Source: Bacteroidales bacterium
GTDB taxonomy: Bacteria > Bacteroidota > Bacteroidia > Bacteroidales > UBA932
DNA: 64,000 nucleotides
Direction: 5' to 3'
Assembly: GCA_017557535.1 (NCBI GenBank)
Contig: JAFYYM010000090.1
Span: 1-64,000 of the forward strand
Shown here one piece after another: positions 29,780 to 36,264 of the stretch. Each line of letters starts with the position of its first letter. The stretch's first letter is position 1. The notes under the pieces were generated by a model. It did no database searches and was not told the origin of the DNA. It was given only the letters and a program-made list of their open reading frames with translations. Both the position numbers and the translations under genes were made by a program.

Positions 29780-31009
29780 ATGAAAGATTCCATCATTATC
29801 CTCTGCGGCGGCGGCCCCGCCCCTGGAATGAACACTGTCGTGTTCTCGGTCGCCAAGACTTTCCTCTCAAACGGCTACAGGGTTATCGGACTTCACGAAG
29901 GCTATAGCGGCCTGTTCAACAAGACCCCCCGTACCGAGGACATAGATTTCTTCAAGGCTGACGCTTATTTCAACAGGGGAGGATCCTATCTCCAGATGAG
30001 CCGTTTCAAGCCCACAGACGAGGATTTTGAGAAGAATTTCAACCTTCCTCTTTTCCAGGACAACAATGTCAAACTTCTTGTGACCGTAGGTGGCGACGAC
30101 ACCGCCTCCACCGCCAACAGGATTGCCAAGTTCCTTCAGGCTAAGAACTATCCGATCCATAACATCCACGTTCCCAAGACCATCGATAATGACCTTCCTC
30201 TTCCGGACAACGCCCCCACTTTCGGATTCAATTCCGCTAAAGACGAGGGAGCCCATATCGCCCGCACTGTCTATGAGGATGCCCGCACCTCCGGAACATG
30301 GCTTCTCATCTCCGCCATGGGTCGTTCCGCCGGACACCTCGCTCTGGGAATAGGTGAGGCCACCCATTGCTCGATGACCATCATCCCCGAGATGTTCAAC
30401 AAGACCACCATCTCTGTTGACAAGATCATCAATCTCACCATCTCAGCCATCCTGAAGAGGAAACTCCTCGGCATCCGTTACGGTACCGTTGTAGTCGCTG
30501 AGGGTGTTTTCCACGATCTCGATCCTGAGGACATCAAGGCCACGGGTGTACATATGACGTATGACGAGCACGGTCACCCTGAGCTCGGAAAGATCAGCAA
30601 GGCTGTCCTTTTCAATGACATCCTCGAGAAAGAGTTCAAGAAGATCGGACTCAAGATCAAGACACGTCCTGTCGAGATCGGTTACGACGTCCGCTGCCAG
30701 GATCCTGTCGCATACGACCTCTCATACTGCACCGAGCTCGCCATGGGTGTTTATGAGCTTTACAAGAATGGAGAGACCGGCTGCATGGTCTACGTCGACA
30801 AGGATGGCAATCCCAAGCCCCTCTACCTCAAGGATCTCCAGAACGCTGAAGGCAAGATTCCTCCGCGCAGGGTCAACATTGACGGTGGTCTGGCCAGGAA
30901 CTATTACGGGAATATCTGCCACTACATCACTCCCGCTGACTACGAGGCCGCCAAGGCTCTTGTCGCCAACCCTGAGGAGTATGATTTCAAGAAGATCTTA
31001 AACTGGTAG
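29780..31009 (+). CDS. pfp: Diphosphate--fructose-6-phosphate 1-phosphotransferase (PPi-PFK)
   Basis: Reversible glycolytic enzyme using pyrophosphate instead of ATP. The 409 aa show the phosphofructokinase fold: CGGGPAPGMN near the N-terminus, GGDDT (104-108) and the catalytic PKTIDND (132-138). Asp at the second position of GGDD is the known mark of PPi dependence, replacing the Gly of ATP enzymes. Codons look strongly biased (CTC, ATC, AAG, GAG), consistent with high expression. The 3' end overlaps the convergent GH13 gene by 12 nt. Confidence 0.93.
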   Translation: MKDSIIILCGGGPAPGMNTVVFSVAKTFLSNGYRVIGLHEGYSGLFNKTPRTEDIDFFKADAYFNRGGSYLQMSRFKPTDEDFEKNFNLPLFQDNNVKLLVTVGGDDTASTANRIAKFLQAKNYPIHNIHVPKTIDNDLPLPDNAPTFGFNSAKDEGAHIARTVYEDARTSGTWLLISAMGRSAGHLALGIGEATHCSMTIIPEMFNKTTISVDKIINLTISAILKRKLLGIRYGTVVVAEGVFHDLDPEDIKATGVHMTYDEHGHPELGKISKAVLFNDILEKEFKKIGLKIKTRPVEIGYDVRCQDPVAYDLSYCTELAMGVYELYKNGETGCMVYVDKDGNPKPLYLKDLQNAEGKIPPRRVNIDGGLARNYYGNICHYITPADYEAAKALVANPEEYDFKKILNW

Positions 31010-32566
31010 TACAGAATAACCGAATCCTTTCACGGAGACGCTCATCTCGAGTGTCTCCGTTTTGTTAATCCCCATATAATCAAAAGCTTCCGCGGGGATT
31101 CTAAGATTCACGGGACGGTCCATGCCTGAAAAGTCGCAGACGATCAGTACCGCTTTCCCTTCGCCTCCCCGGAGGAATGCGAAAGTATGGTCCGGATCAA
31201 ATCCCTGAGTCTCGGAATTACAGTAGCACAGGTCGTATGTCTTTCCCTCATCAATCACAGGATCCGAGATGAGGGAGAGGGTCACTTTGTAGAGACGCAA
31301 AGTATCCTTCTCGCTTTTATTCAGTCCTTTACCGCTATGGATGTGATCATAAAGCCGCCTGAGTGATCCGACGCTCCACCAGTCGAAGATGGTTGTGCGT
31401 CCATCAAGACCACTGAATCCTTCAGCGTCCATGCCTCGCTCACCGACTTCCTGGCCGGAATAAATCATATATGCTGAGTTATTGAGCAGGAGCCCCACAC
31501 ACAAGGAGGATGCGGCCTTTAAAGGGTTTCCGCCGAAAAAGTCAGAAGAGAAACGAGTCTCGTCATGGTTCTCGAGGAAATTCAACATCCGGGGCTGCAT
31601 ATCACCCAGGGACTGCCAATTCCAAGTGATCCCTTTGGAGGTACCACCATCTGTGACAATAGTGCGTAAAGTATCGTATAGACCCGATTTATCATACAAG
31701 TAGTCAAACCCAACCTCGTCTATATACAACCGGTAGAGTTCTTTCTGGTAAACTTCCGCGATGAATATCACCTCGGGGAATTCATCTTTGATCCTACTTA
31801 TAAGCCATTTCATAAACTGCCACGGTACCATCTCCACCATGTCGCACCTGAAACCATCCACACCTTTCAAGCACCAGTGGCGCACTATCTCAAGCATTCT
31901 GTCCCAAGTACGGGTGTGGAAGTCGCAATAGTTGATCCTGACAGTCTCATACCAGTCATTAATGCCCGGGGAAGGGGAGAAACAGTTCCCTGACGCCTTC
32001 GCCGGATTCTCGTAGTATCTTCCGCCAGCAGGAAGGGACAGACGCTGCCCAGGGTAGTAATAAAAGTCATTTTCCGGAGACCAATGCAGAGTCACATCAT
32101 CCGACTTGCCAAGCACCCCCTCAGCGGCTTCATGAACAAGCCCGACCTTGCCGTAATCACGGGAAACATGATTAGGCACAAAGTCCAGAATCGCCTTCAG
32201 ACCAGCATCATGAGTTCGCTTCAACAAAGACTCGAATTCTGACATCCTATTTGCAGGATTATCAGCAAGATAAGGATTGACGTCAAAATAATCTGTGATG
32301 GCGTATGGGGAGCCGGCCAAGCCTTTAACGATGGACGGATCAGAAGCGCCGCAGCCTTCAAAAGCCACAGTCGTCGCATGACGGGGGAGACCTGTGTACC
32401 AGACATGAGTAACCTTCAATTCATCCCTAAGCCAGTTGAAAGTCCGACCGTCGATCGAACTGAATTTGCCACTTCCATTGACCTCGATGCCACCTCCTGG
32501 CACGGGATTATCCACAAGATTTCCCCACAACCTCGGAAGTATCTGATATACAATGACTTTCCCCAT
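30998..32566 (-). CDS. GH13 alpha-amylase-family glycoside hydrolase
   Basis: A 522-aa (beta/alpha)8 enzyme acting on alpha-glucans. GH13 regions are visible: DFVPNHVS (region I, 128-135), GFRCDMVE with nucleophile Asp242, FIAEVY with acid Glu271, and ENHDE with Asp335. It has no signal peptide, so it is probably cytosolic, acting on glycogen or imported maltooligosaccharides. The C-terminal domain is short. Last gene of the trmH-like/PPDK_N/GH13 unit, 4 bp after the PPDK_N gene. Exact substrate cannot be told from sequence. Confidence 0.9.
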   Translation of the reverse strand: MGKVIVYQILPRLWGNLVDNPVPGGGIEVNGSGKFSSIDGRTFNWLRDELKVTHVWYTGLPRHATTVAFEGCGASDPSIVKGLAGSPYAITDYFDVNPYLADNPANRMSEFESLLKRTHDAGLKAILDFVPNHVSRDYGKVGLVHEAAEGVLGKSDDVTLHWSPENDFYYYPGQRLSLPAGGRYYENPAKASGNCFSPSPGINDWYETVRINYCDFHTRTWDRMLEIVRHWCLKGVDGFRCDMVEMVPWQFMKWLISRIKDEFPEVIFIAEVYQKELYRLYIDEVGFDYLYDKSGLYDTLRTIVTDGGTSKGITWNWQSLGDMQPRMLNFLENHDETRFSSDFFGGNPLKAASSLCVGLLLNNSAYMIYSGQEVGERGMDAEGFSGLDGRTTIFDWWSVGSLRRLYDHIHSGKGLNKSEKDTLRLYKVTLSLISDPVIDEGKTYDLCYCNSETQGFDPDHTFAFLRGGEGKAVLIVCDFSGMDRPVNLRIPAEAFDYMGINKTETLEMSVSVKGFGYSVLPV

Positions 32567-32570
32567 ATTG

Positions 32571-35498
32571 TCAGAATCCGATGACAGCCTTGCCGGTGTT
32601 CCTGTCTATGAAGCCTGTCAGACCGTCAACTCTGTAGACTTTGGCGTATTTCCCGTCGAACACCACCTCAAGTGACTCGAATGCCTCGAAATCAATATTC
32701 CCTGATCCGGCATATTCATCGACCGACAGGTAACCGACCCCAAGTGAGGTTATGTTCTGGAAGAAATGCGTCCCTTGGCTAGGCTCAATCCTGAAGCCAT
32801 CCATGCCGTACTCGACAACCATCCTGGCGGCAGAGATGTCCGTCCAGTTCACAGGCACCCCGAGAGTAGGGATTGATGAACCCCAACGTCCCGGGCCTAT
32901 CAGGAAATATGTCTGGTTGGCGGCTGTCATGCGGCTGTTGATCTCTGAGATCTCTTGTGCCATTTCCTCCGTTCTCATCTTATCGAACACTCCGGGGAGT
33001 ATAGCGACTATATGGGAGGATTCATTGAAAAGGCCATTGCCGAGCGCCTGGACGCTGTTAACCAGCTCATGAGGAAGACTGACGGCTGATTCACCGGACT
33101 GGCCTGGCTGATACATTGACATATCAGAAACCGGCCTGACCTGGAGAAGTTCCAGAACCGCCTCGGTCCCTTGGGATCCAGGCACGGGATCGAGAGCGAA
33201 CTCAATCTCAACCTCTGACATAAGTTCACTCTTACATATCTCCAGAATATCAGAAATGGCTTTAGCGAGAGGGAATCGGTCGTATTGGAATATACCGTCA
33301 AACGACACGACTCGCGGCCCTCTTACCATGATCCCGGGCCTCATCATGTCATCCTGCGGGACATAAGTCGAGACAACGATCTCCGGCCTGTCAAAGTGTT
33401 CCAATGCCTCAGTGACAGGAATTCTGCGGAGGTTGACGCCATCATTCTTGGATATCTTGAAAGCTCCTGGCCTCGTGTCCATGACATACATCTCCGACTG
33501 GGTGTCACGCATGGCCAAGGAAGGGGAGGACAACTGCAGTATCTTCTTGGCCGACTTTGGATTGACCCTGAGCGACCTGCCGCCGTCAACAACTGTCTTA
33601 CCAAGACCGAACGCCACATTCATGACCCCGTCAGTGGCCTTCTCATTGCCGATAGGATAGGCGTTGAGCGACCGGGCGACACCCGACAGCATCGGATAGT
33701 AGTCATCACCGTGCCTGGTACCGCAGATACTTTGGATAATGATGGCCATTTTCTCCTCACCGATCAGATTGCCACTGGCTTGGATATATGCTCGGCTCCC
33801 GGCGAAATACGTCGAGGCGTACACGCTTTTAATGGCTTTCGTGATTTCCCTGAGCATCCTGTCTTTATTTTCGACAAGAGGGCACATATAAGTCGAGTAT
33901 ACTCCAGCAAATGGCTGGTAATCACTGTCTTCCAGTTTAGAACTCGACCTCACGGCCACGGGGCTGTCAACAGTGGCGACAAATGCCTTCAGATCATCGA
34001 GCAAGCCTGCGGGCAGAATAGAAGCTACAAACTCGGAGAGGATCTCATCGTCGGACAATTCCGAGTCTATCACATGTTGCAAGCCATTTTCGAGTATAAA
34101 ACGGTCGAACCAATCCGTAGTGACCACGACCGTACGGGGGATTGACACAGTCATGTCCGGATACTTGTCGGACAAGGAATACTTCATCACAAGATGGTTC
34201 AGGAAAGCCAAGCCCCTGGCCTTGCCACCCAACGAGCCTTCTCCGGTCCTCGCGAACCAGAAATAATCCTGGTATGTCTCTTCCTTGAAATCCGCTATCA
34301 CCCCCTGGCCGATCATCCTGTGGTACCGGCCTATCTGATCCATAAGGAATTCCCTGAATTCTGTGGCGTCAGTGTGATGCTCAGCCTTAAAGGTTCCCGC
34401 AAGCATAAACAGCCCCCTGGCATAAAGCCACTTAGAGAACATGTTCCTGGATGTGTTGCTCACCAGAATCTCATCCGGAACCCCACCGATTATCTTCCCG
34501 AGCTCGGTGAGGCTTGATGCCCTGCCGTACTCAGTACCACCGGCATCCTTGAAAACGAAATCCCCGAATCCGAACTCCTCCTTGAGATAGTCGCCAAGTT
34601 GCATGAACAGGGTCCTGGAGAATTTCCTGAGAAAACCCACACCAAGTTCTTCGGCGACTTTCGCTATACTTCCTTGTGAGGACTGGAGGAGGATAGGCAT
34701 GAGGGGGTCATATTCCCGGATGATCCGGACCAGGTCCAAGCCGGCGTCAAGCTTCTCAGACTTCACCTTGTCGCCTTTATGTATCACCATTCCCACATCG
34801 GAAATGACACCCATCAGGTTATCCTTATATTTCTGGAAGTAGGCGTAGGCGTCCTCATAACAAGTGGCCAACAGGATTTTCGGCCTGGAACGCTTCCTGT
34901 ACTTTTTCTGGTCGTCGTTAAGGAACTCGGTCAGGAATTCCCGGCTTTGAGTGATCAGAAGCTTGTACAGCTCAGGCAGATACGTGGAATAATAGCGCAC
35001 CGAGTCCTCCACGAGGAGAATCACCCTCACACCGACCTCGAACACATCGTTATCAGCGTTGGCTGAATCCTCGATAAGCTTGACTATAGCCAGAATGAGA
35101 TCAGCGTTCCCATGCCAACTGAAAACGAAATCGATTCCGGAGCGGTCATTCTCGAAAATCCGCTGCCTCACCGCTTTCGAATAGTGGATCAGCATAACGA
35201 ACGGGATGTTGGAACCATTCTTCCGAAGATCCGCCGCAAACTCGAAAACGTCCTTATCCCTGTCGTTGTACATGCAGATGATCATGTCTATCTCCATGTC
35301 GGCTCCAAGTATCCCGGCCGCCTCCTGAGAGGAATTCGCCCACACGAAAGTCGGGGGATTGCTGAGGTTCAGCTCACGGTATTCACTAACGAGCTGTCTC
35401 TCTACACGTCCGTCCTCCTCAAGGGTGAAAGCGTCGTAGTTGCTGCAGATCATCAGGATCCTCCTGATCCTTGAGCGCATTAAGGATTCCTCATTCAT
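32571..35498 (-). CDS. Receiver-domain plus PEP/pyruvate-binding (PPDK_N) protein, no swivel domain
   Basis: The ATG at 35498 (M-N-E-E-S-L), 4 bp after the upstream stop, gives 975 aa; an earlier in-frame start would lie inside the methylase gene. Residues 12-145 look like a degenerate response-regulator receiver. Residues 158-310 look like an intact one, with acidic VED (164-166), acceptor-position Asp234, Ser273/274 and Lys292. From about 423 (GGKARGLAFL) a PPDK_N ATP-grasp module follows, with VAVRSSSKLED (515-525) and FAGVYS. The phosphohistidine swivel motif (GGxTSHAA) and the TIM-barrel pyruvate domain are absent. It therefore cannot be a complete PEP synthase. Such proteins recur in Bacteroidales genomes; role unknown. 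Confidence 0.75.
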   Translation of the reverse strand: MNEESLMRSRIRRILMICSNYDAFTLEEDGRVERQLVSEYRELNLSNPPTFVWANSSQEAAGILGADMEIDMIICMYNDRDKDVFEFAADLRKNGSNIPFVMLIHYSKAVRQRIFENDRSGIDFVFSWHGNADLILAIVKLIEDSANADNDVFEVGVRVILLVEDSVRYYSTYLPELYKLLITQSREFLTEFLNDDQKKYRKRSRPKILLATCYEDAYAYFQKYKDNLMGVISDVGMVIHKGDKVKSEKLDAGLDLVRIIREYDPLMPILLQSSQGSIAKVAEELGVGFLRKFSRTLFMQLGDYLKEEFGFGDFVFKDAGGTEYGRASSLTELGKIIGGVPDEILVSNTSRNMFSKWLYARGLFMLAGTFKAEHHTDATEFREFLMDQIGRYHRMIGQGVIADFKEETYQDYFWFARTGEGSLGGKARGLAFLNHLVMKYSLSDKYPDMTVSIPRTVVVTTDWFDRFILENGLQHVIDSELSDDEILSEFVASILPAGLLDDLKAFVATVDSPVAVRSSSKLEDSDYQPFAGVYSTYMCPLVENKDRMLREITKAIKSVYASTYFAGSRAYIQASGNLIGEEKMAIIIQSICGTRHGDDYYPMLSGVARSLNAYPIGNEKATDGVMNVAFGLGKTVVDGGRSLRVNPKSAKKILQLSSPSLAMRDTQSEMYVMDTRPGAFKISKNDGVNLRRIPVTEALEHFDRPEIVVSTYVPQDDMMRPGIMVRGPRVVSFDGIFQYDRFPLAKAISDILEICKSELMSEVEIEFALDPVPGSQGTEAVLELLQVRPVSDMSMYQPGQSGESAVSLPHELVNSVQALGNGLFNESSHIVAILPGVFDKMRTEEMAQEISEINSRMTAANQTYFLIGPGRWGSSIPTLGVPVNWTDISAARMVVEYGMDGFRIEPSQGTHFFQNITSLGVGYLSVDEYAGSGNIDFEAFESLEVVFDGKYAKVYRVDGLTGFIDRNTGKAVIGF

Positions 35499-35502
35499 TG
35501 TG

Positions 35503-36264
35503 TCAGGCTTTTGGGGTTGTTCTGCGGCGGAATTCAGCCACGGTAACCGCAGTGGCAACCGCGGCATTGAGAGACTCTGAGCCTCTGTCATTCTCAGGAT
35601 ATGACGGGATGTACAGCCTGTCAGATATAGTGGCGGCAACTTCCCTCGAGATTCCGTTGGACTCGTTTCCTATGACTATCAGGGACTTGGTCTTATCCCC
35701 AATGTTAAGCTCCTTTGAATAAATATTCCCACCATCCAGGAATGTCCCGTAGGCGTCACCACCGGACAGAGTGACAAAGCGGCATAAACGGGAAATGTCG
35801 CAATAGTGGAATTTGACTCTGAATATGGCACCCATCGTGGCCTGGACGACTTTGGGGTTGAATATGTCCACAGTGTCCATGGACGCGAAGACGGCATCAA
35901 TACCAAACCAATCAGCTATCCTGATGATGGTGCCAAGATTGCCCGGATCCCTGATCCCGTCAAGCGCCAGGTAAAGGCCATTGTCGGGAAGGGAGAAATA
36001 CGACAAGTCCGCGATCTCGAGGTCTTTCGGCTTCCTGACCACTGCCAAGGCAGGAGAGGGGGAAGACAGCAAGGTCATCCTGGACATGGCTGTCACACCG
36101 ATCTCAGCGGCTCGATAGCACCTGAATATCTCAAACGAGGACCGGGTAGCCTCTTCGACCATTTTCTCACCTTCGACGACGAACATGCCGTTCGCGTCCC
36201 TGTTCTTCTTGAGCTCGAGCGACTTCACGAACTTGATCTCGTTGTTTGTGATGGGTATGCTCAT
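35503..36264 (-). CDS. TrmH/SpoU-family RNA 2'-O-methyltransferase
   Basis: SAM-dependent ribose methylase of the SPOUT class acting on tRNA or rRNA. The 253 aa contain an N-terminal RNA-binding domain (about 1-95) and the SpoU catalytic domain with ALDGIRDPGNLGTIIR (motif 1), VIGNESNGIS (motif 2) and SLNAAVATAV (motif 3), which form the trefoil knot. RlmB versus TrmH-like target specificity cannot be decided. First gene of a three-gene unit. Confidence 0.9.
   Translation of the reverse strand: MSIPITNNEIKFVKSLELKKNRDANGMFVVEGEKMVEEATRSSFEIFRCYRAAEIGVTAMSRMTLLSSPSPALAVVRKPKDLEIADLSYFSLPDNGLYLALDGIRDPGNLGTIIRIADWFGIDAVFASMDTVDIFNPKVVQATMGAIFRVKFHYCDISRLCRFVTLSGGDAYGTFLDGGNIYSKELNIGDKTKSLIVIGNESNGISREVAATISDRLYIPSYPENDRGSESLNAAVATAVTVAEFRRRTTPKA

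What the first reader, a model, noticed from the sequence alone, without database searches (positions are those of the whole stretch)
32571..35498. Two receiver domains joined to a PPDK_N module lacking its phosphotransfer partner
A degenerate and an apparently complete response-regulator receiver precede a PEP/pyruvate-binding ATP-grasp module. The phosphohistidine swivel domain and PEP-binding barrel needed for PEP synthase or PPDK are absent, as is any DNA-binding output. A phospho-signal may control an ATP-dependent phosphoryl transfer to an unknown partner. It lies 4 bp before a cytosolic GH13 enzyme and next to PPi-PFK, so alpha-glucan (glycogen) phosphorylation or carbon-flux control is a testable idea. 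Databases probably call it PEP synthase, which the sequence does not support.
Basis: partly seen in the sequence, partly recalled or inferred. Interest (0 to 1): 0.75.

Follow-up and report, generated by a model that had tools for sequence, protein, structure and literature searches.

The report
Conserved glutamate-dehydrogenase-linked regulator, not glucan enzyme
This is a widespread but uncharacterised gut-bacterial protein that joins a two-component signal receiver to an ATP-using dikinase module, and its relatives so often sit next to glutamate dehydrogenase that it is probably a missing control on nitrogen assimilation rather than a sugar-polymer enzyme.

Summary
The architecture is real: a degenerate receiver, a complete receiver and a PPDK_N ATP-grasp module, with no recognisable swivel, PEP barrel or DNA-binding domain. 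SxG[TS]HFFxN). The family is near-core in Bacteroidales (252 of 295 genomes) and a minority gene elsewhere in the phylum. Listed ATP-grasp positions are invariant in 96 of 96 homologues, D234 and K292 in 93 of 93. The glucan idea fails: the GH13 neighbour was found only in close relatives, and is convergent in 15 of 28. The recurrent neighbour is glutamate dehydrogenase (GDH), adjacent in 36 of 45 matched genomes of other classes and in 20 of 71 sampled Bacteroidales, where 2-oxoacid:ferredoxin oxidoreductase genes also occur nearby. Best reading: a phospho-signal-gated, ATP-dependent regulator of GDH. The linkage is shown; regulation and chemistry are inferred; many loci, the window's included, lack the linkage. 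If right, it makes testable a 1996 report (title seen) that Bacteroides GDH activity depends on trans-acting genes downstream of gdhA.

The parts
32571..35498 (-). REC-REC-PPDK_N-CTD gene, 975 aa
   Evidence: near orthologues L038-L040 and L042-L045 start at the same Met
35049..35471 (-). REC1, degenerate receiver (residues ~10-150); conserved but no phospho-acceptor Asp
   Evidence: profile matches response-regulator structures; residue table
34464..35036 (-). REC2, complete receiver (residues ~155-345), E164/D165, D234, S273, K292
   Evidence: 30 of 47 homologues match Response_reg; residue table
34797..34799 (-). codon of D234, predicted phospho-acceptor
   Evidence: Asp in 93 of 93 rows
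33117..34235 (-). PPDK_N ATP-grasp module (residues 422-794)
   Evidence: G424 G425 K426, R517, E523, D524, Q589, E764, E766, Q786 in 96 of 96, position 788 R in 79 and K in 17
32574..33101 (-). uncharacterised C-terminal domain (residues 800-975)
   Evidence: invariant GRWG, GxPxxW, SxGxHFFxN; no Pfam, no convincing PDB match, no swivel similarity
32766..32768 (-). codon of H911, invariant His of the C-terminal domain
   Evidence: invariant column in 96 sequences
30998..32566 (-). GH13 gene 4 bp downstream; lineage-specific neighbour, not part of the conserved system
35503..36264 (-). SpoU-family RNA methyltransferase 4 bp upstream; neighbour in close relatives

Best explanation
It is a two-component-controlled ATP-grasp regulator of glutamate dehydrogenase, at the 2-oxoglutarate/glutamate branch point of carbon and nitrogen metabolism. 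Shown: the domain order, intact receiver and ATP-grasp residues, and recurrent linkage of the family to GDH. Inferred, in order of falling certainty: (1) the protein controls its partner GDH; (2) phosphorylation of D234 in REC2 by a histidine kinase gates the ATP-grasp site, with degenerate REC1 as a docking or dimer surface; (3) the ATP-grasp module transfers phosphate, through or together with the H911-containing C-terminal domain, to GDH or a small effector, switching GDH activity with nitrogen supply. In the window's lineage the gene is apart from gdh and sits between a methyltransferase and a GH13 gene.
For: All 45 genomes of other classes that matched in the phylum sample (G230 dropped): GDH is the immediate neighbour of at least one fetched family member in 36 of 45, in 10 of 11 families. 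These genomes have 1-6 GDH-domain matches each; with roughly 3000 genes, chance predicts well under 1 of 45 (my estimate). Bacteroidales sample: adjacent in 20 of 71 genomes (13 of 51 families), within two genes in 25, within five in 27; KorAB-type genes within two in 11 (one KorAB pair named by NCBIfam). The one genome of the same class but another order, G147, has GDH on both sides. Same genus as the window: GDH adjacent in 1 of 6 looked at (L111). Variants A, C and D all show it; for C/D 11 of 16 genomes adjacent. Of 72 family members with an adjacent GDH, 65 have it on the same strand. In 10 genomes with two pairs having GDH upstream, regulator and GDH paralogues match in 31 of 33 genome comparisons above a small threshold (38 of 45 without it; swap null P 0.003). 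Named: Parabacteroides distasonis gdhA is divergent from it with a second GDH 3.5 kb away; Phocaeicola massiliensis has the same arrangement, with malic enzyme beside the second gdh.
Against: GDH is near-universal in the phylum (271 of 296) while this family is in 49 of 296 (G230 dropped), so GDH does not generally need it. In Bacteroidales 44 of 71 sampled genomes show no GDH within five genes, nor does Prevotella oral taxon 299; in the window genome both GDH genes lie on other contigs. Eight of 45 other-class genomes show no GDH within five genes of any fetched copy; family f49 is 0 of 4. Paralogue pairing can arise from duplication of the linked pair without any interaction, and with 12 genomes including downstream partners it is weaker, 31 of 41. 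The C-terminal domain has no known fold, so the acceptor is unknown.
Confidence: 0.5

Rival explanations
1. It is a nitrogen-responsive metabolic enzyme, not a regulator: the ATP-grasp module phosphorylates a small metabolite of the 2-oxoglutarate/glutamate node, with receiver control, and GDH linkage reflects a shared pathway.
For: PPDK_N modules act on small molecules in known enzymes (recalled); motif residues invariant; KorAB-type genes also nearby in 11 of 71.
Against: No PEP-binding barrel or known substrate domain; receiver, sensor and nucleotidyltransferase fusions look regulatory.
Confidence: 0.2
2. It is an internal phosphorelay: the ATP-grasp module phosphorylates the invariant His of the C-terminal domain, which passes the phosphate to D234 of REC2, so ATP rather than a histidine kinase charges the receiver.
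For: Invariant H911 and D234 in one chain.
Against: C-terminal domain shows no similarity to phosphohistidine swivel domains; variants C and D have PPDK_N and the C-terminal motifs without receivers.
Confidence: 0.08
3. Glucan phosphorylation or glycolytic flux control through the GH13 and PFK neighbours.
For: 4-bp spacing to a co-directional GH13 gene in the window; co-directional with -8 to +4 bp spacing in 12 near relatives.
Against: No relative of that GH13 within five genes in 71 other Bacteroidales or 45 other-class genomes; convergent in 15 of 28 close loci; no carbohydrate-binding domain.
Confidence: 0.05
4. Catalytically idle scaffold: the ATP-grasp fold only senses ATP/ADP and the protein is an energy- and phospho-sensing binding partner of GDH.
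For: No acceptor domain of known type; position 788 is K rather than R in 17 of 96.
Against: The other listed motif positions are invariant across 96 sequences down to 28% identity.
Confidence: 0.17

Closest known systems
PEP synthase / pyruvate phosphate dikinase
   Same: PPDK_N ATP-grasp module with GGK, VRS, (E/D)IE and LQxR motifs aligned
   Different: no detectable phosphohistidine swivel, no PEP/pyruvate barrel; receivers and a new C-terminal domain instead
Alpha-glucan water dikinase and rifampicin phosphotransferase (recalled)
   Same: PPDK_N without a PEP barrel, third substrate
   Different: both carry the swivel His domain (recalled); none detected here; no carbohydrate-binding domain
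Two-component response regulators
   Same: complete receiver REC2
   Different: no DNA-binding output; output is an ATP-grasp module
Trans-acting gene(s) downstream of Bacteroides thetaiotaomicron gdhA (Baggio and Morrison 1996; only the title seen)
   Same: a gene downstream of gdhA affecting GDH activity; in Parabacteroides distasonis and Phocaeicola massiliensis this gene lies 3.5-4.1 kb downstream of one gdh and divergent from the other
   Different: whether B. thetaiotaomicron carries this gene was not testable here; BT_1969 is malic enzyme and BT_1971 catalase, so by synteny BT_1972 is my predicted orthologue

Membership tests
PEP synthase / PPDK | PPDK_N ATP-grasp domain | tested here: met
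   129.5 bits over a cut-off of 27
PEP synthase / PPDK | phosphohistidine swivel domain (PF00391) | tested here: not met
   profile comparison at null level
PEP synthase / PPDK | PEP/pyruvate-binding barrel | tested here: not met
   only PPDK_N found by Pfam; the NCBIfam PEP-synthase hits cover only the N-terminal part of those models
Response regulator | receiver with phospho-acceptor Asp, acidic pair, Ser/Thr and Lys | tested here: met
   (family level; the window's own REC2 segment does not match Response_reg alone)
Response regulator | DNA-binding output domain | tested here: not met
Alpha-glucan water dikinase | swivel His domain and carbohydrate-binding module | tested here: not met
GDH-linked REC/PPDK_N family (proposed) | recurrent adjacency to glutamate dehydrogenase across families | tested here: met
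   36 of 45 other-class genomes; 20 of 71 sampled Bacteroidales; but not in the window genome itself
GDH-linked REC/PPDK_N family (proposed) | controls GDH activity | not testable with these tools
   needs genetics and enzymology
GDH-linked REC/PPDK_N family (proposed) | folds as receivers, ATP-grasp and a separate C-terminal domain | not testable with these tools
   structure prediction switched off

The most novel reading that the evidence does not exclude
A previously undescribed form of covalent nitrogen control in Bacteroidota: a two-component-gated, dikinase-type ATP-grasp enzyme with a new conserved phosphotransfer domain (H911) reversibly phosphorylates glutamate dehydrogenase. It belongs to a modular network in which one sensor domain is also fused to Crp-type regulators and nucleotidyltransferases, and fills a role that GlnD/GlnE-type modification plays elsewhere.
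Probability: 0.2. Interest if true: 0.88.

Novelty: new variant of a known kind. Interest (0 to 1): 0.64.

Why it matters
How Bacteroidales switch glutamate dehydrogenase activity is, to my knowledge, poorly understood; a 1996 paper reports trans-acting genes downstream of gdhA that affect it (title only). A member of this family is in 252 of 295 sampled Bacteroidales genomes, yet none of the titles listed in my eight answered searches of an open-licence library describes it. It gives a named gene, named residues and cultivable strains for testing that control, and adds a signal-controlled dikinase module with a new conserved domain of unknown fold.

Tried and rejected
Glucan link: rejected on neighbourhood. 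C-terminal domain as a divergent swivel: by eye the His-centred stretch and an I-D-G ending looked alike, but six hhalign runs (one, three, two) and a 60-shuffle null gave no support. The swivel set was badly extracted and was replaced; of 31 listed rows two (L244, L246) could not be extracted, and L228 was left out beforehand as a near copy of L227. PDB and Pfam searches with the C-terminal domain gave only chance hits. My first guess that BT_1971 is the B. thetaiotaomicron orthologue was wrong: it is catalase. A probe pattern meant to mark Bacteroides genomes matched 0 of 295 and told nothing. Co-occurrence with GDH is weak evidence because GDH is near-universal: all 50 genomes matched (own and G230 included) have it, but so do 221 of the other 246. 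Viral contigs gave no relative of the C-terminal domain; PADLOC gave nothing. Plasmid records outside Bacteroidales gave only partial PPDK_N matches (Deinococcus; Rhodococcus, Piscirickettsia). Three records labelled 'Bacteriophage sp.' from faeces hold the gene at 40-48% identity, likely bacterial DNA. A paper on Prevotella ruminicola nitrogen genes (passages) did not mention this gene in what I saw.

Sampling: the 71 Bacteroidales were not random. 56 came from high-scoring matches with room around them, 13 of the 14 matched same-order genomes (G034 dropped for a short contig), and two. Of the window's genus I looked at wide neighbourhoods of 6 genomes only. The 45 other-class genomes are all those matched; G230 (weak PEP-synthase-like match, same class) was dropped, and some second copies were not fetched. 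GDH, GH13 and Kor labels come from BLAST to a few queries (E 1e-15 or better). My ORF caller is simple (longest ORFs, at least 70 aa). The outward spread of the family beyond Bacteroidota was not tested beyond plasmid and phage records.

Full report
What is there. The gene lies on the minus strand, 35498 to 32571, 975 aa. The organism is a Bacteroidales MAG near Candidatus Cryptobacteroides, judged by the named relatives. Pfam sees one domain, PPDK_N. A 96-sequence alignment (A1) shows the rest. REC1 is a receiver without the acceptor Asp. REC2 is a receiver with its key positions conserved (E164 93/93, D165 90/93, D234 93/93, S273 93/93, K292 93/93), and 30 of 47 homologous REC2 segments match Response_reg, the window's own not among them. 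ATP-grasp positions G424, G425, K426, R517, E523, D524, Q589, E764, E766 and Q786 are identical in 96 of 96, position 788 is R in 79 and K in 17; the GGK, VRS, EIE and LQxR motifs align with those of PPDK.

Residues ~800-975 form a domain with GRWG, GxPxxW and SxGxHFFxN motifs invariant in all rows. Against Pfam, 12 families matched one member each of 55 and the window's segment matched none; the PDB gave five matches, best E 0.39. I tested whether it is a disguised phosphohistidine swivel: the profile score is 14.0, within the shuffled null (13.1 +/- 2.2; 16 of 60 shuffles at or above 14), while the PPDK_N positive control scores 45.7 with E 3e-5; adding variant D lowers it to 12.5.

Distribution. 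Matches occur in 33 of 41 relatives, 252 of 295 Bacteroidales at 90% completeness or more (a few of these matches are weak or partial) and 50 of 296 genomes sampled across the phylum; each count includes the window's own genome, and the last includes G230, which I do not count as a member. Four layouts exist: A (REC-REC-PPDK_N-CTD, ~1000 aa), B (A with an N-terminal extension, ~1160 aa), C (PPDK_N-CTD, ~580 aa) and D (sensor-PPDK_N-CTD, ~1060 aa). Of 18 genes over 1100 aa, 13 have A as the next gene downstream at gaps of -29 to +70 bp. The extension was compared in four of them: three (L096, L197, L106) share a ~130-residue domain with D, with Crp-type regulators and with a small nucleotidyltransferase protein; L102 does not. 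A nucleotidyltransferase motif of the GS...DID form was found in 10 of 16 D genes, and Pfam confirms the domain in the one scanned (L128).

Neighbours. In all 45 matched other-class genomes: GDH directly next to a fetched family member in 36, in 10 of 11 families; within five genes in 37; no relative of the GH13 within five. In the Bacteroidales sample: GDH adjacent in 20 of 71, within two in 25, within five in 27; KorAB-type genes within two in 11; GH13 in none. In six genomes of the window's genus GDH is adjacent in 1 and GH13 in 2; two genomes of the sister genus have neither. Of 29 close loci from genome contigs, 27 have the GH13 within five genes; with the window, 28 loci, it is co-directional in 13 and convergent in 15 (the two loci without it are truncated contigs). 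The GH13 association is therefore a local gene-order feature. Named records show the GDH link in Parabacteroides distasonis and Phocaeicola massiliensis and not in Prevotella oral taxon 299.

Paralogue pairing. Ten genomes carry exactly two regulator-GDH pairs with GDH upstream. In 31 of 33 genome comparisons above a small distance threshold the regulator matching agrees with the GDH matching (38 of 45 without it; P 0.003 by swapping partners within genomes, 2000 swaps). With 12 genomes and downstream partners allowed it is 31 of 41. This shows that pairs travel together; it does not prove contact.

Function. The safest statement is a strong genomic link of the family to GDH. Regulation of GDH is the best inference because the protein carries a phosphorylatable receiver, variants carry sensor and nucleotidyltransferase domains, and GDH paralogues tend to have their own partner. 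The chemistry is open. I rank ATP-dependent phosphotransfer to GDH or an effector above an idle ATP sensor because the ATP-grasp residues do not drift. GDH presence alone says little: all 50 genomes matched have one, and so do 221 of the 246 others (same sample size and handles).

Literature. Eight answered searches listed no title on this protein; the library is open-licence only. Baggio and Morrison 1996 was seen only as a reference title; its details are recalled and its text is not held. BT_1969 is malic enzyme (passages) and BT_1971 catalase (passages); that BT_1970 and BT_1973 are GDHs is recalled. The gene order in Phocaeicola (malic enzyme, gdh..., this gene, gdh) then predicts BT_1972 as the orthologue; I could not test it.

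Verdict. Observation confirmed, interpretation half right. The glucan idea should be dropped and a GDH/nitrogen-control idea put in its place.

Noticed in passing
G000:C58:238408-238614 (L066): A free-standing ~135-aa protein with a phosphohistidine swivel match (PF00391, 50.6 bits) in the window's genome, apart from the PPDK and a 514-aa PtsI-like match. It could in principle partner a swivel-less PPDK_N protein.
   Followed up: partly
L096:10767-14258, L128:2807-5986, L200:5946-6725, L200:10654-11772, L106:3714-8363: An undescribed ~130-aa sensor-like domain is shared by B and D variants, Crp-type regulators and a small nucleotidyltransferase protein; L106 has at least three copies in tandem.
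   Followed up: partly
L096, L097, L172, L192, L194: 2-oxoacid:ferredoxin oxidoreductase genes directly upstream of tandem B-A genes, with GDH on the far side: an apparent 2-oxoglutarate-node cluster.
   Followed up: partly
L116:9787-11857: A PAS histidine kinase and a LuxR-type response regulator lie between two regulator-GDH pairs; genes of the same clusters recur in L115, L117, L121, L127 and L134.
   Followed up: no
L286: In G268 one family copy is split by a stop codon (possibly an assembly error) while a shorter copy elsewhere (L130) is open.
   Followed up: no
phage records MT835667.1, MT835811.1, MT839982.1: Faecal 'Bacteriophage sp.' records carry this gene at 40-48% identity, probably bacterial DNA.
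   Followed up: no
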